Made by a program: the position numbers and the translations under genes. A stretch of DNA of 64,000 bases from Acytostelium subglobosum LB1 (Eukaryota > Evosea > Eumycetozoa > Acytosteliales > Acytosteliaceae), in assembly GCF_000787575.1 (NCBI RefSeq), contig NW_012236526.1:1054001-1118000 (forward strand). Reading direction: 5' to 3'. Under the pieces are notes generated by a model, which had not been told where the DNA came from, did not search any database, and was given only the letters and a program-made list of their open reading frames with translations. Positions 7,607 through 62,607 of the stretch are shown piece by piece; the stretch's first letter is position 1; the number at the start of each line of letters is the position of its first letter.

Positions 7607-7680
7607 TCATTCAATCATTCAATCAATCAATCAATCAATCGATCATTTCAAATGTATATATGGTTCAAAGCTACCACCCT

Positions 7681-9929: not shown

Positions 9930-12057
9930 TTAATAAGTTAGTTGATCAATATTATATTCAGGAATAATCAATCGTAGAACAGATAGTGCGGCTAAACATA
10001 GATTATGTGTTAGTTTGAATAAATGAACACGCAGCTCGAATGAAGAGATAGATACATACCAATGAATGATGACACTGATCCAGTTAACAATGATATAACT
10101 ATATCACCTCCAAAGAGATCAATGATGAAACTGATCGTCAATGATACTAGTAGTTGTGGCACCACCACGAATATGTTCATCACTCCAATGTGTAGTCCAC
10201 TCTTGCTGGCAGTTGATCCCATTCCAACTATTGTGAATGGCATTACCATGACGACTGCCCACGAGAATCCTGTTGCACCAATGAGGAACAGACACGATAT
10301 GCGTCCTTCGACAAAGAAGAACAGTCCAAAGCACACTGCTTGAATGAATGTTCCTATGAAGTAAATCTCCTTGTGTCCAATCAATCTTATCAGCCAAGGT
10401 AAAAGCAGGGAGGAGGCAATGGCCACGACTGATTGGATCGATAGGCCAAGAGAGCCTCGGCGCACTCCCTCTTGGAATAGGTCGAGACCAATTGATCCAG
10501 CGGGTGCGTTGGGATTGCCATGATAGACATCGACTCCAACCCATGTGGTGACGTAGAGAACAAAGCAGAACCATCCAATCCATGAGAAGAACTGTGTACA
10601 ACATACTCGCGACAAGTATGGAGGTATGTCTCGCAATGAGTCAAATATATGGCGGAGGTAGTTTGTCGATTCTAGATGTTGATTGATCGGTTGATAAGTA
10701 TCCTCCTTGATAACAATGAGTGTGATTGATATTGATATTAAAAGGACTATACTAGAGATGGCTTGGGTAGTGTATGTAAGTCAATGGCGTTATGGTTGAT
10801 CGATTGATTGAATGCTTACTAAATAATATCCGAATGTCTGTCTTCATAAAGGGTAGTAATCCAACCAAACTGAGTGAGCCCATGAAGTAACCTAATAGGT
10901 TACCAATGCCTAACATGATGGAGAATAGGGATGAACCTAGTCCTTGTTGAGCAGGTGGTGCGACATCAACCAAAAGTGCACGACAAGGTGATTGTACAGC
11001 ATTGTTTGAAAGGTCCAATATCCAGAATCCAATGATCTATATGATTGAAATAGTCAGTTCAGTTGCCACATCCTTTGGATTCCAACTGAAGAGTTATTAT
11101 CTTACCGCTAATATAATAGCCTTGGTCTGTTTATCTGGAGTATCACCCATCTTTGCTCCAATTGAAGGTGCATTTGATATTAACATAAGTCCAAGAACTA
11201 TGAGTTGGAGGTTAGTTTGATTGATTGAACGTAGACCTTGGGTTGTTAGGTACAACAACATACCAATACATATTGATCCAAAGAATATAAATGGTTTCCT
11301 TCTTCCATATTTGGATACCAATCGATCACTGATCACTCCAACAATTGGCTGGACTATCAGTCCTGAAACAGGTCCCGCGATCCAAATAAATGATACCCAG
11401 AATCGTGACACTCCAAGCTGTAAGAACATCGGAGTACTATATGCCATTTGCAAGGCCCCTATTGTGAAAACATGGTCATGGTCAGCCATGCATTCAATCT
11501 TTGATCTTGACATCATTCTTAATACACTTACAACCAAACTGAACGCCCAAGAAAGAGATTGAGAGTGCTATTAGTTTGTATAATGGCAGTAATGGTTGGT
11601 TGGGCGGAGGTTCGCTTGGCAGGTCATCTTCGTTGATATCAACATGTCCTATGTCCTGTATCAGAGGCACATTGTCCTGGTCCATTCCAGACATATATCT
11701 TTTGAAGTCGTCTCTTTCTCGTTCATCAAGGTCTTGATTGTTTGATGATTGCTTTTCTTCTCCTCCCGGATGAACATCCACTGACACTACACTATAGTTA
11801 TCACTTGTTTGTTGACCCTCTGGTATCACTAATATACGAGTTGGCATTGACGATGATAATGTTGATGATGAAGATTGTTGTTGTTGTTTATCGTATCGAT
11901 TGTGATTGTCAACATCTTTGATGTTGTTTGGTTGATATTGATCAATGTCTATTGATGATGATGTACCTGTCACAGCAGCTGTGTTGCTGACACTTGCATC
12001 ATTATCAGTGCTGACCAACTTCTTGTATGAAGCTTCTTTGTTCTTTAAGTAATTCAT
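9930..12057 (-). CDS. SLC45/GPH-family proton-coupled sugar transporter
   Basis: Exons 12057-11532, 11458-11106, 11036-10820, 10761-10060 and 9991-9930 close in frame at 619 residues. The start is the ATG at 12057. Residues 1-150 are a Ser/Asn/Gln-rich cytoplasmic tail. The membrane part shows the SLC45/sucrose-symporter hallmarks GVSRFWVSFIWIAGPVSGL followed by QPIVGVISDR and GRRKPFI, later NNAVQSPCRALLVDVAP and a second SWIGWF motif, with about 12 helices. Members export or import sucrose and glucose with protons. A 39-base stretch at 11198-11236 has GT-AG ends and no stop, so it may be an intron or may add 13 residues; removing it leaves QVLGLMLIS, which fits the family better. The substrate cannot be fixed. 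Confidence 0.88.
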
Positions 12058-12486: not shown

Positions 12487-13796
12487 TCATTTCCAAAACT
12501 CTGAAATCTCGATATTCCTCTTAGTCACCTCGTACTTGTTCATAATATCTTCTTCTTCCTTTGTGCATTTTCTAGCATCGGCAATCACCATCGGGGCTCT
12601 GGTCAATGGGTTTCTAGGATTTTTGTCCAATGCTTTTTCGAGGCAATCATAACAATAGTAAGTGACAGACCTTCCATTCAAAGTGTATACAGGGTTCCTC
12701 AACTTTTCTCTGCAGATAAGGCAAATGTATCCGTTTGGCTCAACATTTGAGAGTGCTCTCAAGAACATTTCCTTAAGACCAACCTGGTCCTTGAGATGAG
12801 TTAACTTGGCCTTGTATAATAGAGACGTATCCACACTTTGATTCAATCCATTGATAAGCTTCTTAATATCATTGAACTTGATCACAGGGATGGCCACAGC
12901 AGTTGATCCAATACCTACTCCTACTGTTCCACCAGTAATCATCAATACTCCAGCGCCGGTAGAAACAAGTGAAGTGCCTCCAGTTACTGGAGAGAAAACA
13001 AATCCAGTAATAGTCAAAACAATACCAACTACTAAAGTGGATATTCCCACTCTATATTTCCAATAGATTGATTGATTAGTGTTAGTACTGAATAATGTCA
13101 TATATAATATTCTTTAACATACCCCAATCCAATATTCATATCCTTCTTGAGATCTTCTGATTGCATCTCCAACTCTGGAAGTTGTGTTGCAACACTTTTA
13201 ACCAATTGATTGGTTAAAGAGCTTATTGCTTGGTATAGGGACCACATATAGTTCTCGATAGACTCTAGTTTGGTGGCGTACTCTAATATTGAGATAGAAG
13301 CTATGTCCTTCTTATAACTATCTACGAAAAGGAGGTAGTGGGAAATAAACTCCAATATCTTTCCTTGTATGTTCTTCAGAGTATCTGGAATTCCAGCACG
13401 ATTGACATGCTCAGAATATCTATTCTGGAAAATAATCAAGATGAGAGAGGATATACGTTCCAACTCAAATTTCAAGATTAGTTTGGCAAGGACAAAGAAT
13501 TCAATCTAAAAATGGGAATAATAAAGGTTAATAAATGATTAATATTAATATTGCCCAAAAATAATACTTACAGTATTGACCTCAGATTCAATTCTCTTTA
13601 ACATTTCAGTATATTTAACTTGATCCTCCTTGAATGTTTTATAATCATTATTATTCTGGTTGTTGTTGTTATTATTATTGTTTGGATCCTTAGATAGAGG
13701 TTTTTCCTTCTCACAACATGAGATCTCTAAGGGAACTGAGACTGGGAGATATATCTGATTATTGTTAAGGGTTTGTTTGTTATTTGAGTTGCCCAT
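12487..13796 (-). CDS. U-box-like protein with ApoL-like glycine-rich membrane hairpin
   Basis: Three exons (13796-13572, 13505-13123, 13051-12487) give 390 residues. Residues 1-75 are Asn-rich and polar. Residues 76-200 are mostly helical (for example SSLILIIFQNRYSEHVN). From about 204 to 260 runs a hydrophobic, glycine-rich double segment, VVGIVLTITGFVFSPVTGG then GAGVLMITGGTVGVGIGSTA, whose pattern recalls the membrane-inserting hairpin of apolipoprotein L and glycine-zipper pore proteins. The C-terminus has a RING/U-box hybrid: CLICREKLRNPV, then YYCYDC and NPLTRAPM, keeping two Cys pairs with a U-box-like core. The likely role, by inference, is a membrane-inserting ubiquitin ligase. A paralog lies at 25516-26700 with the first intron at the same place. 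Codon use is far richer in A+T than in neighbouring housekeeping genes. Confidence 0.75.
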
Positions 13797-25515: not shown

Positions 25516-26700
25516 ATGGATAAAAAAACTACAAATATTAATAATAATAATAAGAATACTTATGAGGAAGTAAAGACTAATATAGATACCAACAATGTTG
25601 ATTTTATAGAACATCCTGTTGAGTTCAATTCTGAAGGACAAAATCAAGAAGTATTATGGACCAACCTCTTAAATTTAATCGGGAATATTGAGAACGAAAT
25701 TATCCCTAATGTAAATATTATTCAATTAATTATCAACTATAAAATTATGATAATATATATTTACTTTCTTGACTTTAAGGTCTCCTTCCTGGAGAATTCA
25801 AGGAGATTGATGTCTTTTGAATTCAATCGTCTTGAACAACTTCGAAGAGTATTGTCTCAACCAAACTATACCACCAAGGTGATTGAAGCTAGTATTCCTG
25901 AAAAGTTGTACAACATAATTGACAAGACTAAACAATTTGTACAACAATATGAAAGATTTTTGTACTTGTACAAACAGGACGTTACTAGAATCCAGATAGT
26001 TCAATATGCGGAGGATTTGGAAAATATTCAAATAAGAATGGATAGAATGGGAAGTGAGGTCACTGAATATGTCAATAATCTCATTCCAGAGGTTTCTACT
26101 TTGATTAGATCACTTGGAATTGATCGTCTATCATATAGTGATGAAATAGTAACAAAAAGTGGACGTATATTAACAAAGATATTTATTTATTTTGGTGGCT
26201 CAATGATATGCAAGAAATATGGTATCAATATCAGCAACTTCATTCGATTTGATGATCTCCCTCAAGTGATAGAAGATTCCCATACTGCATTTATTTCTGT
26301 CCTAAAGTATAGTGAGATCAAGGAAATAATGTATCAGCTCGATTCAAGTGTCCTGGAATCAATTGTGTACCGTGACAACATTCGCAAATTCACCTCGGAA
26401 ATCGGTCTCAAGGAACACTTTATGAGAGCATTGGAGAATGTTGAAGTTGCAAACCAACTTATTTGCGGTATATGTCTAGACAGGATGGAGGACCCATGCT
26501 ACATCAATGATGGCATTAGCAACAGTTACTACTGTTACCAATGTATCAAAGGTTGGTTAAGTGTTCATCCAACTAACCCAAAGACACGTGAACCGTTGGA
26601 TGAAGAGGATATTCATAAGTGTGATCGCAAGTGGGTCCAAAAGAATATCCACTTCCAAGAGATCAAGCTTAGAGTCAAGGTTTATGAATTCTGGAGATAA
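25516..26700 (+). CDS. U-box-like protein, paralog lacking the ApoL-like hairpin
   Basis: The whole stretch is open for 394 residues, but bases 25711-25779 (69 bases, GTAAAT...TTTAAG, stop-free) look like an intron. Removing them gives 371 residues and places the intron exactly where the paralog at 12487-13796 has its first one. The helical N-terminal region aligns in pattern (YERFLYLYKQDVTRIQIVQYAEDLENI against the paralog's SYKKDIASISILEYATKLESI, shortened here). The C-terminal third matches well: IGLKEHFMRALENVE, CGICLDRMEDPC, SYYCYQC and NPKTREPL. In the middle, where the paralog has the glycine hairpin, this one has only ILTKIFIYFGGSMICKKYG. The result is an E3-like protein without a clear membrane segment. 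Codon use is AT-rich. Confidence 0.75.
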   Translation: MDKKTTNINNNNKNTYEEVKTNIDTNNVDFIEHPVEFNSEGQNQEVLWTNLLNLIGNIENEIIPNVNIIQLIINYKIMIIYIYFLDFKVSFLENSRRLMSFEFNRLEQLRRVLSQPNYTTKVIEASIPEKLYNIIDKTKQFVQQYERFLYLYKQDVTRIQIVQYAEDLENIQIRMDRMGSEVTEYVNNLIPEVSTLIRSLGIDRLSYSDEIVTKSGRILTKIFIYFGGSMICKKYGINISNFIRFDDLPQVIEDSHTAFISVLKYSEIKEIMYQLDSSVLESIVYRDNIRKFTSEIGLKEHFMRALENVEVANQLICGICLDRMEDPCYINDGISNSYYCYQCIKGWLSVHPTNPKTREPLDEEDIHKCDRKWVQKNIHFQEIKLRVKVYEFWR

Positions 26701-42226: not shown

Positions 42227-43700
42227 TTACCGATTGCTAAAATTGACGCCAATACTACTACCTGTGGCCTGTTGTGGATCGTGACTGTGGAGGCCAATGT
42301 ACGTACTTAAGTACTTGGACTCCTCCACTTGGATGATATACTTCTTGACCTGGCAGCCACTCGTCGTGCACTTATAGTAGCTCTTGGGGTAGACACTGCC
42401 ACGCACGTACTTCTGGCCATACTTCTTCCACTGGTAACCATCGCTCAGCAGTTTGTCCATCGAGTCGGCCTCGATGACAACCGTGTGCGCATTGGCGTCG
42501 TCATATTCGTCATCATAATACGCCGAGATGTCTGGCGCACTATTACTCTTGTCTTGTTTGGATAGTTCCGAGTCGGTGAACTCCTCCAACGACAGGTAGT
42601 TGTCGGTCTCGTCGTCCTTATTGATCAGGGCATTGATATTGGACTTTCCCGGCTCAATATCTTCTAACCTCTGTAGGTTTGGCGGAGAATGGAATGGAAT
42701 GAATTAGTGATTGATTCTTTGGTTGATTGATTGATTGGTTGATTGATGATGGACATACCTTTGTATTCTCACCCTTTGCAACTGGGAGTGCGTGGACATG
42801 TCTCCCCTTGTACTGGATGCTGCACTTGTTATCTGTGGAGTTCTTCTCTTCTTGCTTCTTGGCCCGACAACCTGGATAGGTGCACTTGTAGTAGTTCCTG
42901 GTCAACTGATGGCCCTTGATATTCTTCTGGCCGTACTTGCGCCAATTGTAACCGTCTCCACCACTAGAGCTGGTGGGTGGTGCCGAAGCGGCTACAAACA
43001 TAGAGCTACCGGTGGCAGAGGAAGGTGAGGTGCTGGTGGTTGAAGTTTTCGCTGGTGATGAAGGAGGACGCTGGGGATTATGAGGAGGACGCTGCAGATG
43101 TTGTGGAGAAGGAGGAGGAGGCGGAGATAATGGGGAAAGTGGTTGGTGATAATGAGACTGGTGGTGGAGGTATTGTGAGGCGGATGATGTGGTTGTGGTT
43201 GTGGTTGTTGTCGTGGTCGTAGGTGGTGGACTGGTCTCGGGCTCTGAGTCGGATAAATTATCCTGTTCATCGGGTGACAGGAGGTAAAATGGTTGGAAGT
43301 GTCGTTTGCTGGACGCTCCAGGCTGCTGCGGATGCAGCCTGGATTCAAGAAAAGGTGGGTTGGTGATGGTGGTCGTTCTCGGCATCGGAAATGGATTGTT
43401 GAATGGTCTGTAGGGATGGTGGAGGTGAGTGGCCAGGCCGGGCAGCTGCGGTGGTGTTTGATTGGATATCAGGCCACCGATGGGGGAGGAGGAGGATGAG
43501 GAGGATGAGGAGGATGAGACGGGGGATGGCGCAGATGATGGTGGTGATGCCGGTGACTTTGAGGAGGATGATGCGGTGGATTGTGATGGCGCTGATTTAT
43601 TGGCGTTGGAGTTGGCGGAGGAGGACGAAGGTGATGATGCAGTGGATTTAGAGGACACTTTCCACCTGACAGGCGTGTGGTGGAACCGATCTGAATCCAT
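42227..43700 (-). CDS. wrky1: WRKY transcription factor with two WRKY domains
   Basis: Two exons (43700-42759, 42670-42227) give 461 residues. The first 240 are Ser/Pro/Thr/His-rich. WRKY domain 1 (about 251-305) has YNWRKYGQKNIKGHQLTRNY, the C-x4-C of CTYPGC, and the HxH pair in GRHVHAL. An acidic linker (DDEYDDANAH) precedes WRKY domain 2 (about 384-440), with YQWKKYGQKYVRG, CTTSGC and LHSHDPQ; its heptad is WKKYGQK, a variant of WRKYGQK. The intron follows the first zinc finger. Dictyostelium discoideum has a single two-domain WRKY gene, so orthology is likely. The factor binds W-box DNA (TTGAC core). It converges on the RasGAP-VPS9 gene. Confidence 0.95.
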
Positions 43701-46135
43701 AAGATAGGCAAACTATTATATGTATATATTTCGTTGTTCATGGAGATGGCCCTGGTGGCCTTGTTTATGGTAGATAAGTTGGTGTGGAAATATATATTGT
43801 TTAATTGATTGATTAATGAGGAAGAGTAATAGACGCCGTATCTTTGATAATAATTATATGATAATAATAATAATTAATAATAATAATTAATAATAATATA
43901 TATATATATATAGAATGAATGAATGTAGACGTAGTCTTGTGTAGTCTATGCTAGTTTTTGAAGTGTAGAAGTTTGTTCGAATTGACAATTTGATGGTTTG
44001 GCGGATTGTTTGAATTAGGAATGTGTGTGATTTGAATGAATGAAGGGTAATGTAGGAGTGAAGCGAAGAGGTGAAGTGAAGTTGCGTTGAGTTGTGTTGT
44101 GTAATGACCTTTGTTAACTTATTCTATCTTCTTTGGCGGTTCTTCTTTCTATTTCTATTTTTTTGTTTTCAATACTAAGCCAACAGGTGCTAGCTAGCTT
44201 GCTTGCTTACTTAATAGGTTATTGCAGATGTTGTAGTGGCAGTATCACAATTGCTGTCCATCATTCTCGTCGACAAGAATGAGGTGGTAATGTATGTATG
44301 TATGTTGGTAGTAATAGTAATAGAAGTAGTATTGAACTAAGGTAAGATTGATTGACTGACTGACGATTATTGACTGTCTGTGACTGAATGACTAGTTGCG
44401 GGTATTCTAAATATAATTATATATATATATATATGGTAATATATTAATATTGATTAATTGATTAATTGATTAAATCTAGGAGATGAAAAAAAATGTTGTT
44501 GTACTGTGAAGAGGGAGATCTTAGTTGGTGGGATCGACTGGAATTGTGCCAATGGATGGTGGGATTAGGCCTTTATGTGCGTGAGGCCTCCTTTTCTTGT
44601 GTTTTGTTATTCTCGAACACACACAAACAACACATACACACACAATCAAACAAACAATGTAAGTAATACTACACAACAACAGTGTAATTGTTATGGATGG
44701 ATTGATGAATGGTTGAATTGAAGATGATGGAGATGTGTGTGATGAGATGAAATGAAATGATGCAGAGCGATGTAATGTAGAATGATGCGCTGGATAACTG
44801 GTAGATTGACTGAATGACTGACTATGTATGAATTACTGTATGAAAGTATGGTTGTGTGAGTGAATGAGTGTGAACGAGGGAAGGAGATGGTGGAGGGTCT
44901 CCGGTGGTGGCAAAGGGGAGGGAGGATAAGGGGGGGATGGTGTCTGTTCGCCTTGAATGGTGGGGCGCCTGCGTATGGACTGTCACAACTCTCTCTTCTC
45001 AGCTGAGCTCTCTCTCTCTCTCTCTTTTGATTCAAAATCAATCAATCACAACAACACAAATTGTTTTATACAATGGAGGATAATGTATATAATGTGAGGA
45101 TAGATAGAGAATAATAATATACTGACTCTAAACGTGTTAAATTCGACGATGATTGTAGTTGTGTCCTCTAAGCTTGGGAGATGTGTCTCTCTCTTTGTAA
45201 GCGTAACTTAGTAAGTAAGTAAGACCTCCCCTCTCTAGCTCCGCTGGAGTCTCACGCCCATAGATGGGTAAATAATCTGCAAAAAGCTCAGGACACACAC
45301 ATCGATTGCCCACATACATGGCACACTTCATGAATTACTGGTGGTGCCCAACACATTGATATTTTTACTCACATAGTTATTCATGTGTGTTTTGGGGGTG
45401 GTGGTCCACCCAATCACCACTCCCCGCGATCACCTTGCCTCTCCTGCCCTAAATTGTCGTCAAATCTCCTAGCTGTTTTAGCATGGTCCCCAAGCATGCT
45501 AGCCCCATGGCCATCAACATGACCACCGCGCTTCAAACAGATCACTCAGTCTCTCTCACTCAAGTCATACTCTAAATAAAGAGGGACCGCGGGCTGTGGT
45601 GAGTAAAACTCCCCCTCAATCAAGATATCAATATCGTTCAATCACTCTATCAGTGAGTGAATTAGTCAGTGTTGTTTCAATCAACAATCATGAATGGTTT
45701 TCTTTGGTGTATGTTGATGGCGAGAGTCAGTCTACACTTACAACAATTAAAATTGGATGCGCTGAGGGACGTGAGTACACCTTTGCATTGATCAATCATG
45801 ACTGGCGGTGATGGGATTAATAAGGGTGCGCGGGGGTTCTATCAATAAGTCAAGAGTACAGGTTACATCTAATGCATTTATTGCGCAACGCGGGAAGTTA
45901 TTGCCCTTTCCGCTGGTACAAAAGTACGCATTTGGAGTATACTCTGGGTTGGTCGGGAAGACTCCCCCCATTAAACTAACACACTCATCCATCGTTCAAT
46001 CACACTCCTACACTGACTGACACATACACCCCCTGATCAATAAATTATACTCACTCATTTCATTCATTCCATTGAATTGATTCAATCTTGCATTATTATA
46101 TCGACCATGCATGAATGCTGCAAAGGGAATGACTC
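43701..46135. other. 2.4-kb non-coding region upstream of the WRKY gene
   Basis: Long region with no supported gene. It holds AT microsatellites (about 43858-43912, ATAATAATAATT and TATATATATATATA; 44415-44435), CT runs near 45006-45024 and 5-base TAAGT repeats near 45209. A plus-strand stretch at about 45650-45811 has weak protein character (NNHEWFSLVYVDGESQS) but no start, splice context or family. Regulatory sequence for the WRKY factor is a reasonable guess for the part next to it. Confidence 0.45.
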
Positions 46136-54505: not shown

Positions 54506-54536
<31 letters not shown>

Positions 54537-59598: not shown

Positions 59599-59633
<35 letters not shown>

Positions 59634-60844: not shown

Positions 60845-61060
60845 TGCGCGGGTTTCGAAGATCTCACCCCATTGAGTACCTTGTTGGGCCTAGACTACCA
60901 ACGCCTCGATGCCATGTACACAAATGGTCAGTTGACCCACTACATCGATGTCGTCAACTTACTGGAGGTCAACTGGGTGAGTCCGAGTGCCAACTTGAAG
61001 ACCAATTCAAGTCAAGAACAAGTCAGGAGTGCGATCCAGGGGCTTGTCTTTGCACCCATT
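60845..61060 (+). pseudogene. orphan coding-like block, no start or stop assigned
   Basis: The frame opened after the TAA at 60842-60844 reads with strong coding character: GFEDLTPLSTLLGLDYQRLD, then MYTNGQLTHYIDVVNLLEVN and QVRSAIQGLVFAP, about 70 residues with GC-rich third positions. After about 61060 the text becomes AT-rich and repeat-like (ATCAATCAATCAATC). There is no ATG at the left and the only upstream possibility is an unseen exon. It ends next to the signal-peptide gene at 61129 but in another frame. It could be the tail exon of a lost gene or a duplicated fragment. I do not recognise the family. Confidence 0.4.
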
Positions 61061-61128
61061 ATCAATCAATCAATCATAGACCGGTCCTTATTATATTCAT
61101 ATATTACTATTATCTGTATCATCAATCA

Positions 61129-62607
61129 ATGTATTCATATTATATATTATTAATCACACTCATTGTTGTTTGCTTCTCCAACAACAACAATGGTGTAGTG
61201 GTCAATGCTCAACAAGCACATGCTGAATGTTTATACTCACATTCATTGCCCGACGACTCGATCCTGTTGCCAGACTCCACTGGACGATCGATGTTCCACG
61301 ACTTTTTTGGCAACACAGAGTCGAATGGATTCTCGACGATCGATTCAATGTACGCCAAGCCCAACACCACATGTGACGTGCTGCCCGACGCCAGCTCATA
61401 TTGGATACCCGCACTCAAGGTCAAGGGCATGATCATTCGTCCAAGCTACACCAAGATCTACTACCAAGGTGGCAACAGCTCCTTCTACCCCGTGTCTGTC
61501 ATGCCCAGAGGTCTGCAGATCATCGCCGGCAATCCAAAGAATACTGGACGTGCTCGCGGCGTATGGTTCTTGTGCAATGGCTATAACCGCGACCCTGTGA
61601 AGTACTGCCCGGCCAGTCCCGACACCTACAACGTCACCCAGTACAACTTCAACCTGATCTTCCCCAACTGCTGGGACGGAGTCAACATCCGCCCCAACTT
61701 CACCTACAGGAACGCAGTGTTTGACGACAAAAACATCGAGGGCAAGTGTCCACCCGACTACCCCGTGCGCATTCCCACGCTCAACATGCAGATCGCCTAC
61801 TACCTCAACGAGACTGATCTGTCCGACGCACAACTGTCCCTCAATCCTGTGGTTGTCAATGGTACATGGACCTACCCATGGGCCAGCCTGTACTCGGCCC
61901 ACGCCGACTTCTTCAATGCTTGGGACGAGGAGTCGATGAAGTACATGGTGGAGGAGTGTCTAAACAAGAACCGCAGCTGTGAGAACAGGGTGCCACGCGT
62001 GTACGGTCCCGCCGACGCCACATTTGCCATGGTGAACAACAAGAAGGTCAACACTCCCGTGCTCCAGATCAACAATGACAGCATCCCATTCATCAAGATC
62101 ACGATACCCGATCGCCTCAAGGGTCTCAGCTGGGCCTCTGGCAGAATCGAGATCAATTGCCAAAACAACAACCTCACTGCCTTGCCCGACTTTATCAATG
62201 TCTACCAGGTGACTGCCGAGTCCTTTGCCAGCTCATCACCAGTGTGCCCAAACAAGAACAGAGTCAGTGGCATCTACTTGGATGGAGAACTTGACTACCG
62301 TGGCATTGACATCACCGATATCGTACGCAATGCCACCGTCAATGGCGTCAAGGAGTTGTACTTCTGTCTCAGATCATCGGATGGCGTGGAGACATACTCA
62401 TTCGAATCGATGAATGGCCTAACTGGTAAATTGCCACGCATTCTCTTCATGGATCCTGGAAAGAAGATCATTGAGCAGCCACTCCCAGGTCTCGTGCCAT
62501 ACCTCTATGTCGACCCACCCCAACCAAAGCCAAACACTGGTGCAATCATGATGCCATCTCTGGCGATCACATTTGTCTCTTTGTTGTTGGCTATTATAAT
62601 TTATTAA
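61129..62607 (+). CDS. secreted DUF1996-like protein with GPI-type C-terminus
   Basis: Single exon of 492 residues taken from the ATG giving MYSYYILLITLIVVCFS, a signal peptide; the frame is open further upstream (to 60835) but that text is not protein-like. The first 300 residues carry the DUF1996 pattern: an early RMF-like SMFHDFFG, then GMIIRPSYTKIYYQG, RGLQIIAGN, FLCNGYN, NLIFPNCWDGVN, KCPPDYPVRIPTLNMQIAYY and SLYSAHADFFNAWDEE. A second region of about 150 residues is unassigned. Many N-x-S/T sites occur. The end NTGAIMMPSLAITFVSLLLA and four more residues fits a GPI signal. DUF1996 is known mainly from fungi and bacteria, of unclear function; copper or carbohydrate links are not shown here. 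Confidence 0.82.
   Translation: MYSYYILLITLIVVCFSNNNNGVVVNAQQAHAECLYSHSLPDDSILLPDSTGRSMFHDFFGNTESNGFSTIDSMYAKPNTTCDVLPDASSYWIPALKVKGMIIRPSYTKIYYQGGNSSFYPVSVMPRGLQIIAGNPKNTGRARGVWFLCNGYNRDPVKYCPASPDTYNVTQYNFNLIFPNCWDGVNIRPNFTYRNAVFDDKNIEGKCPPDYPVRIPTLNMQIAYYLNETDLSDAQLSLNPVVVNGTWTYPWASLYSAHADFFNAWDEESMKYMVEECLNKNRSCENRVPRVYGPADATFAMVNNKKVNTPVLQINNDSIPFIKITIPDRLKGLSWASGRIEINCQNNNLTALPDFINVYQVTAESFASSSPVCPNKNRVSGIYLDGELDYRGIDITDIVRNATVNGVKELYFCLRSSDGVETYSFESMNGLTGKLPRILFMDPGKKIIEQPLPGLVPYLYVDPPQPKPNTGAIMMPSLAITFVSLLLAIIIY

What the first reader, a model, noticed from the sequence alone, without database searches (positions are those of the whole stretch)
12487..13796. U-box-like protein with an ApoL-like glycine-rich membrane hairpin
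Seen in the sequence: a helical N-terminal region, two adjoining hydrophobic glycine-rich segments at about residues 204-260, and a C-terminal RING/U-box hybrid with only two Cys pairs. Known: apolipoprotein L and glycine-zipper proteins insert such hairpins in membranes, and APOL3 attacks bacterial membranes in animal cells; U-box/RING domains pass on ubiquitin. Inference: a self-inserting ubiquitin ligase, perhaps used against bacteria or damaged phagosomes in an amoeba that eats bacteria. The AT-rich codon use and island setting fit a lineage-specific immune-type gene.
Basis: partly seen in the sequence, partly recalled or inferred. Interest (0 to 1): 0.75.

Follow-up and report, generated by a model that had tools for sequence, protein, structure and literature searches.

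The report
Membrane-anchored ubiquitin ligase with soluble twin
An amoeba-like genome carries a gene for a protein that probably tags others with ubiquitin while sitting in a membrane, and a nearby sister gene makes the same protein without the membrane part, so the proposed bacteria-killing role is possible but unproven.

Summary
The gene is real: three exons on the minus strand (13796-12487) encode 390 aa. The described parts are mostly there: a helical-looking N-terminal half, a 58-residue stretch without any charge (203-260) that fits a membrane hairpin, and a C-terminal RING/U-box domain (controls 67, 68). That domain keeps only the Cys pairs of zinc site 1 (C313, C316, C336, C339); site 2 is U-box-like.

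The ApoL likeness is weak. Pfam ApoL matches 56 of 298 profile positions, below its cut-off, though 0 of 9 shuffled or reversed controls match it. Glycine-zipper spacing does not exceed what the composition gives.

The main new result is a paralogue in the same window (25516-26700, + strand). It shares the N-terminal half, linker, RING/U-box and the position of intron 1, but not the hairpin; that segment is unalignable between clearly homologous flanks. The hairpin is therefore an exchangeable module.

Best reading: a family of divergent RING/U-box ligases, one member tethered to membranes and one soluble. An antibacterial role is untested. Both structure predictions failed (mean pLDDT 42 and 34), and scans of viral and prokaryotic contigs found no relatives.

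The parts
13572..13796 (-). gene A exon 1 (residues 1-75): poly-Asn-rich tail beginning MGNSNNK
   Evidence: splice model
13506..13571 (-). gene A intron 1, 66 nt, GTAAGT...TTTTTAG
   Evidence: same aligned position as the intron of gene B
13123..13505 (-). gene A exon 2 (residues 76-202 and part of codon 203): presumed helical domain
   Evidence: residues 76-194 align with B at z 13.3 against shuffles; no Pfam match of exon 2
13052..13122 (-). gene A intron 2, 71 nt, GTATGT...TACTAAC...ATATAG; lies at the start of the hairpin and is absent from B
12487..13051 (-). gene A exon 3 (end of codon 203 to 390, and stop): hairpin, linker, RING/U-box, tail
12880..13050 (-). uncharged Gly-rich hydrophobic hairpin-like segment (residues 204-260), in A but not B
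12736..12873 (-). conserved linker (residues 263-308) with GLKExFxRALxNVE
   Evidence: 18 of 46 aligned positions identical to B
12589..12735 (-). RING/U-box domain (residues 309-357): zinc site 1 C313, C316, C336, C339; site 2 replaced by N350-P-x-T353-R
   Evidence: controls 67, 68
25516..25710 (+). gene B (paralogue) exon 1, residues 1-65
25711..25779 (+). gene B intron, 69 nt, open in frame; same aligned position as A intron 1
25780..26700 (+). gene B exon 2, residues 66-371 and stop
   Evidence: tblastn E 2.9e-40; blastp E 3e-46
26131..26295 (+). segment of B (residues 183-237) in the place of A's hairpin; no good membrane helix, not alignable with A's hairpin
26452..26598 (+). RING/U-box domain of B (residues 290-338), same four Cys, with a Trp where E3s often contact the E2

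Best explanation
Gene A encodes a membrane-tethered ubiquitin ligase. The C-terminal domain folds like a RING on the zinc site 1 side and like a U-box on the site 2 side, and it recruits an E2 through the usual surface. The N-terminal half binds substrates or partners. The uncharged Gly-rich hairpin, perhaps helped by N-terminal acylation, holds the protein on an inner membrane so that ubiquitin is placed on proteins there. Gene B is its soluble sister with the same ligase and helical parts. Shown: the gene structure, the paralogy, the RING/U-box kinship, the four retained Cys, and the presence of the hydrophobic segment in A but not B. Inferred: ligase activity, membrane insertion, which membrane, and the substrates.
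For: A profile of the two C-terminal domains matches solved E3 domains: TRIM37 3.3e-5, LNX 4.5e-5, U-box 12 6.6e-5, and LubX 3.1e-5 (LubX summed over two domains that are each weak). Reversed and column-shuffled versions of the same profile find no RING or U-box (2 matches, best E 0.98, and 0 matches). The four Cys sit at ligands 1, 2, 5 and 6 in both paralogues with identical spacing; these hold one metal in a cross-braced finger (PMC7614390, passages). Residues that normally meet the E2 or ubiquitin are kept in both: I315 between the first Cys pair, R354 after the lost last ligand, and P356 (positions; their roles recalled). B also has the usual Trp, W324. The protein sequence looks constrained: identity at codon positions 1, 2, 3 is 0.47, 0.57, 0.33, against 0.27 expected at position 3. 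The hydrophobic segment is 58 residues with no charge. A begins MGNSNNK, which fits the N-myristoylation pattern (recalled, not scored by a tool); B begins MDKK.
Against: No structure supports any of it: mean pLDDT is 42 and 34. Pfam RING and U-box scores are below the curated cut-offs in both proteins. A has Ala (A343) where B and many E3s have the E2-contacting Trp, so A could be a weak or dead ligase. The second hydrophobic segment is marginal (flat Hessa sum +2.94), so the region could be one membrane helix, or a buried hairpin in a soluble fold. Only two sequences are available.
Confidence: 0.6

Rival explanations
1. A is a self-inserting, ApoL-like defence protein: the hairpin enters damaged phagosome or bacterial membranes and the ligase domain then coats the site with ubiquitin.
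For: Pfam ApoL is the best match of the hairpin region (E 2e-4 for residues 150-305), and 0 of 9 shuffled or reversed controls match ApoL. The match includes the stretch before the hairpin (183-238). APOL1 and APOL3 are described with a TM hairpin next to helical hairpins, APOL3's hairpin as flexible through many helix-breaking residues, and APOL3 as a killer of intracellular bacteria (PMC10937811, passages). A ligase for endolysosomal damage, TrafE, exists in Dictyostelium (PMC10181826: title and start of abstract, one passage).
Against: The match covers 56 of 298 ApoL profile positions and is below the cut-off (18.6 of 25.9 bits). The sister protein B lacks the hairpin. APOL1's hairpin carries acidic residues that tie insertion to low pH (PMC10937811, PMC8446801, passages); A's has none, though APOL3 is reported to act independently of pH, so this counts against likeness to APOL1 only. 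There are no expression or localisation data.
Confidence: 0.12
2. A is a helical pore-former related to the bacterial HBL/Nhe/MakA toxins, captured by the amoeba and fused to a ligase domain.
For: phmmer against the PDB lists HBL-L1 first (E 0.023 whole protein, 0.0079 for residues 150-305), with MakA (0.51, 0.16) and NheL1 (0.56, 0.21) further down at roughly collinear positions.
Against: The reversed hairpin gives far better but meaningless matches in the same search (E 1.7e-16 to designed proteins), so such E-values mean little for this stretch. The joint profile of A and B lists no such protein among its 48 matches up to E 10. The stretch between hairpin and RING is only some 45 residues.
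Confidence: 0.04
3. A is an ordinary integral membrane ligase: the hydrophobic stretch is a constitutive two-pass anchor (for example ER or endosome) and the protein does quality control or trafficking, with no link to defence.
For: Many RING ligases are membrane-anchored (recalled). The first segment scores as a strong, uncharged membrane helix, and the zipper spacing is not above chance. This is the null version of the best explanation.
Against: The second segment is weak for a constitutive helix and very Gly-rich; AT-rich codons suit a conditionally or weakly expressed gene.
Confidence: 0.3
4. A is a decaying or non-catalytic scaffold: it lost the E2-contacting Trp and zinc site 2 and no longer ligates ubiquitin.
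For: A343 replaces the Trp seen in B; site 2 ligands are absent.
Against: B lacks site 2 as well, U-boxes work without zinc (recalled), the reading frame is intact and RING plus linker is the best conserved part of the pair (z 20.3; 21 of 52 and 18 of 46 identical).
Confidence: 0.12

Closest known systems
U-box and RING E3 domains (PDB matches LubX, TRIM37, LNX, U-box 12)
   Same: First Cys pair with Ile between (RING side), Gly turn, helix after the second Cys pair, and a U-box-like P-x-T-x-x-P close
   Different: Only zinc site 1 is kept; site 2 looks like a U-box. Canonical RINGs bind two zincs and canonical U-boxes none (recalled)
Apolipoprotein L (Pfam PF05461; APOL1, APOL3)
   Same: A hydrophobic Gly-rich hairpin-like segment preceded by a helical-looking stretch; weak profile match 183-238
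   Different: Below cut-off, 56 of 298 positions; no acidic residues in the hairpin (unlike APOL1); C-terminal RING/U-box where APOLs have HC2-LZ2; sister gene lacks the hairpin
TrafE, TRAF-like ligase of endolysosomal damage in Dictyostelium (PMC10181826)
   Same: A proposed amoeba ligase with a RING-type domain acting at endomembranes (for A this is inference)
   Different: TRAFs have an N-terminal RING, a series of zinc fingers and a TRAF domain (passage); no TRAF family is listed by Pfam for A or B
HBL/NheL1/MakA helical pore-forming toxins
   Same: Gly-rich hydrophobic stretch in a helical protein, roughly collinear position
   Different: Match not above the noise of a reversed control

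Membership tests
RING/U-box E3 ligases | Sequence-profile kinship with known RING or U-box domains | tested here: met
   Two-paralogue profile: LubX 3.1e-5, TRIM37 3.3e-5, LNX 4.5e-5, U-box 12 6.6e-5; reversed and column-shuffled profiles find none. Single-sequence Pfam scores are below cut-offs
RING (canonical, two zincs) | Eight Cys/His ligands in cross-brace | tested here: not met
   Only ligands 1, 2, 5, 6 present in A and B
U-box (canonical, no zinc ligands) | No metal ligands; Pfam U-box above cut-off | tested here: not met
   Four Cys kept; Pfam U-box 15.5 bits of 21.4 in B, not listed for A
RING/U-box E3 ligases | Transfer of ubiquitin with an E2 | not testable with these tools
   Needs an in vitro assay
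Apolipoprotein L | Pfam ApoL match above the gathering score | tested here: not met
   18.6 bits of 25.9, E 0.0014; 21.4 bits for residues 150-305
Apolipoprotein L | N-terminal helical bundle, TM hairpin, membrane-addressing hairpin, C-terminal HC2-LZ2 | tested here: inconclusive
   A hairpin-like segment is present, the C-terminus is a RING/U-box instead; folds not predictable. Features from PMC10937811 passages
Glycine-zipper membrane proteins | GxxxGxxxG in excess of composition | tested here: not met
   One GxxxGxxxG, P 0.35 in 20000 shuffles
HBL/MakA toxins | Significant sequence or fold match | tested here: not met
   E 0.0079 while the reversed control reaches 1.7e-16 to unrelated designs; fold not tested
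TRAF family | TRAF domain and TRAF-type zinc fingers | tested here: not met
   No such Pfam match listed for A or B up to E 10

The most novel reading that the evidence does not exclude
A ubiquitin ligase that carries its own conditional membrane-inserting hairpin: soluble at rest, it enters a damaged phagosome or bacterial membrane and builds a ubiquitin coat there, merging in one protein the APOL3-like and RNF213/TrafE-like steps of cell-autonomous defence (RNF213 recalled). Its hairpin-free sister acts in trans as a brake or amplifier.
Probability: 0.08. Interest if true: 0.75.

Novelty: new variant of a known kind. Interest (0 to 1): 0.36.

Why it matters
If the ligase activity holds, this pair is a natural experiment: the same helical and ligase modules with and without a membrane hairpin, close together in one genome. 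The domain that keeps zinc site 1 of a RING but closes site 2 like a U-box is also a useful intermediate for the question of how metal-free U-boxes arose from RINGs. A defence role, if shown, would put membrane attack and ubiquitin tagging in one protein, but nothing here shows it.

Tried and rejected
Structure: two AlphaFold2 jobs on alignments made only of window sequences (B exon 2 with A exons 2 and 3 as separate rows; A exon 3 with the matching part of B) gave mean pLDDT 42 and 34. In both, the first residue of the A exon 3 row was read as Met by the tool (GTG). No fold search was run on the models, because matches would mean nothing.

Relatives: three scans of viral contigs and one of genome contigs found none. 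By their descriptions these collections are viral, bacterial and archaeal, and each scan used two to six short peptide patterns, some of them poly-Asn, so the absence says little. The window's own genome is not held. The phage, plasmid and E. coli collections were not searched.

HBL/MakA kinship: considered because HBL-L1 headed the PDB list; dropped after the reversed control. Only one control was run for that search.

Ancestral hairpin with decay in B: tested by aligning A 195-258 to B 183-237. 79% of 2000 shuffles score as well, so no remnant can be claimed, and gain in A versus replacement in B cannot be told apart.

More copies: a six-frame profile search of the window found no third member (next best E 0.19 among 1498 frames).

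Papers: 'Dictyostelium' + 'U-box' + 'apolipoprotein L' gave 0 papers; 'apolipoprotein L' + 'Dictyostelium' gave 1, on curcumin and prostate cancer. Further searches: 15 of 27 listed; 14 of 14; 0; 6 of 7; 0; 25 of 57; 5 of 6. None of the titles listed names this protein. Subscription papers are mostly not held.

Full report
What is there. Gene A lies on the minus strand from 13796 to 12487. Exons 13796-13572, 13505-13123 and 13051-12487, joined at introns of 66 nt (GTAAGT...TTTTTAG) and 71 nt (GTATGT...TACTAAC...ATATAG), give 390 aa with one stop, at the end. Within the limits searched, two other GT/AG choices for intron 2 also keep the frame (385 and 373 aa), but only the chosen one has a GTATGT donor. 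The frame looks constrained at the protein level: against its paralogue, identity at codon positions 1, 2 and 3 is 0.47, 0.57 and 0.33 over 301 codons, with 0.27 expected by composition at position 3; 9 of 28 comparable fourfold sites are identical.

The paralogue. tblastn of A against the window finds a second gene at 25780-26697 on the + strand (E 2.9e-40). Gene B has exons 25516-25710 and 25780-26700 around a 69-nt intron and encodes 371 aa. The two align over most of their length (blastp E 3e-46, 108 of 382 identical), and B's only intron falls at the same aligned position as A's intron 1. A's intron 2, which sits right where the hairpin begins, is missing from B. A six-frame profile search finds no third copy in the window (next best E 0.19).

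The hairpin. Residues 203-260 of A hold no charged residue or His. The peak 19-residue hydropathy is 2.29 in A and 0.89 in B. By a flat Hessa sum the first half is a good membrane helix (-0.47) and the second marginal (+2.94); the best segment of B scores +8.86. The zipper-like glycines (GGTVGVGIG at 243) are no more than the composition predicts (P 0.35 for GxxxGxxxG, 0.52 for GxxxG). The segment is not alignable with B (79% of 2000 shuffles score as well), while the stretch before it aligns at z 13.3 and the stretch after it at z 20.3, with 0 of 1000 shuffles reaching the score in each. A discrete module was thus gained, lost or replaced between conserved flanks.

ApoL or not. Pfam ApoL matches A at residues 183-238 with 18.6 bits (E 0.0014), against a cut-off of 25.9. 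For residues 150-305 alone it is 21.4 bits (E 2e-4), while none of eight shuffled and one reversed version matches ApoL (best control match to any family E 0.0051). So the likeness is a little more than composition, but 56 of 298 positions below the cut-off is no membership. The PDB list headed by HBL-L1 (E 0.0079) is not trustworthy, because the reversed hairpin gives E 1.7e-16 to designed proteins in the same search.

The ligase domain. Single-sequence scans are below threshold (A: zf-C3HC4_2 17.9 of 27 bits, 19.5 for exon 3 alone; B: U-box 15.5 of 21.4). A profile of the two C-termini matches LubX, TRIM37, LNX and U-box 12 at 3.1e-5 to 6.6e-5 (LubX by the sum of two weak domains), and the full-length profile finds U-box 12, LNX and TRIM37 at 3.3e-4 to 9.1e-4. 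Both proteins keep C-x2-C-x19-C-x2-C. In a cross-braced finger one metal is held by ligands 1, 2, 5 and 6 and the other by 3, 4, 7 and 8, and RINGs are cross-braced (PMC7614390, passages); so all four Cys belong to one site. The other site reads N-P-x-T-R-x-P in both, as in U-boxes (compare the U-box 12 alignment). Ile between the first Cys pair and Arg after the last lost ligand, recalled as E2- and ubiquitin-contacting positions, are kept in both; the Trp of the E2 face is present in B (W324) and is Ala in A (A343).

N-terminus. A begins MGNSNNK, which fits the recalled N-myristoylation pattern; B begins MDKK. If real, A has two membrane features and B neither. This was not scored by a predictor.

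Mechanism. The most likely reading is that A is a ligase tethered to an endomembrane by the hairpin and perhaps an acyl group, with the N-terminal half choosing the substrate, and that B is the soluble sister. Shown: gene structure, paralogy, domain kinship, retained ligands, presence and absence of the hydrophobic module. Inferred: catalysis, insertion, membrane identity, substrates. APOL3's attack on bacterial membranes and the TM hairpin of APOLs are described in PMC10937811 (passages), with the membrane-insertion domain of APOL1 in PMC8446801 (passages); neither transfers to A on the present match. In fairness to that idea, APOL3's hairpin is described there as flexible and rich in helix-breaking residues, as A's is rich in Gly.

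Setting. A and B have GC3 0.40 and 0.36, against 0.39-0.72 in 20 other mechanical ORF stretches of the window, some of which may include intron read-through; intergenic GC around A and B is 0.21-0.30 in four stretches. That fits weakly expressed genes that drift to the background composition as well as it fits a recent arrival. Of ten ORFs scanned, those with Pfam matches look housekeeping-like or ordinary (TCP-1 chaperonin, mannitol dehydrogenase, RasGAP, exonuclease, LRR, PHP, MFS, DUF1996; two had none). The social-amoeba setting rests on poly-Asn runs, short AT-rich introns and a WRKY-like ORF at 42654-43712 (motif recalled); no call identified the species.

Limits. Two sequences only; no usable structure; no eukaryote collection to search; scans of viral and prokaryote contigs empty.

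Noticed in passing
whole window, e.g. 7619-7638, 13077, 16179, 54506-54533, 58489, 59601-59632: Runs of the tetranucleotide TCAA in any register (3 to 8 units, mixed registers allowed): 43 sites on the two strands against about 3.4 expected from a first-order Markov model. Several lie on the sense strand of genes soon after a branch-point-like CTAAC (13077, 16179, 58489), as if they stood in for the pyrimidine tract of introns.
   Followed up: partly
14578-14278 and 14217-14123, minus strand: Small secreted-looking Cys-rich protein (131 aa, signal-peptide-like start, one intron) just upstream of gene A on the same strand; no Pfam match.
   Followed up: partly
10013-10780, minus strand (ORFs up to 12057 may belong to it): Membrane-transporter-like (MFS) gene downstream of gene A; sub-threshold Pfam match, 19.2 of 33.4 bits.
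   Followed up: no
42654-43712, minus strand: ORF with a WRKY-like stretch (GYNWRKYGQK...CTYPGC; motif recalled), a plant-type transcription factor domain in an amoeba-like genome.
   Followed up: no
60847-62604, plus strand: Secreted-looking protein with a DUF1996 domain (E 1.3e-33).
   Followed up: no
A residue 365 / B residue 346: A fifth Cys in a KC motif after the RING/U-box is invariant between the paralogues; the TRIM37 alignment shows a Cys near the same place. Meaning unknown.
   Followed up: no
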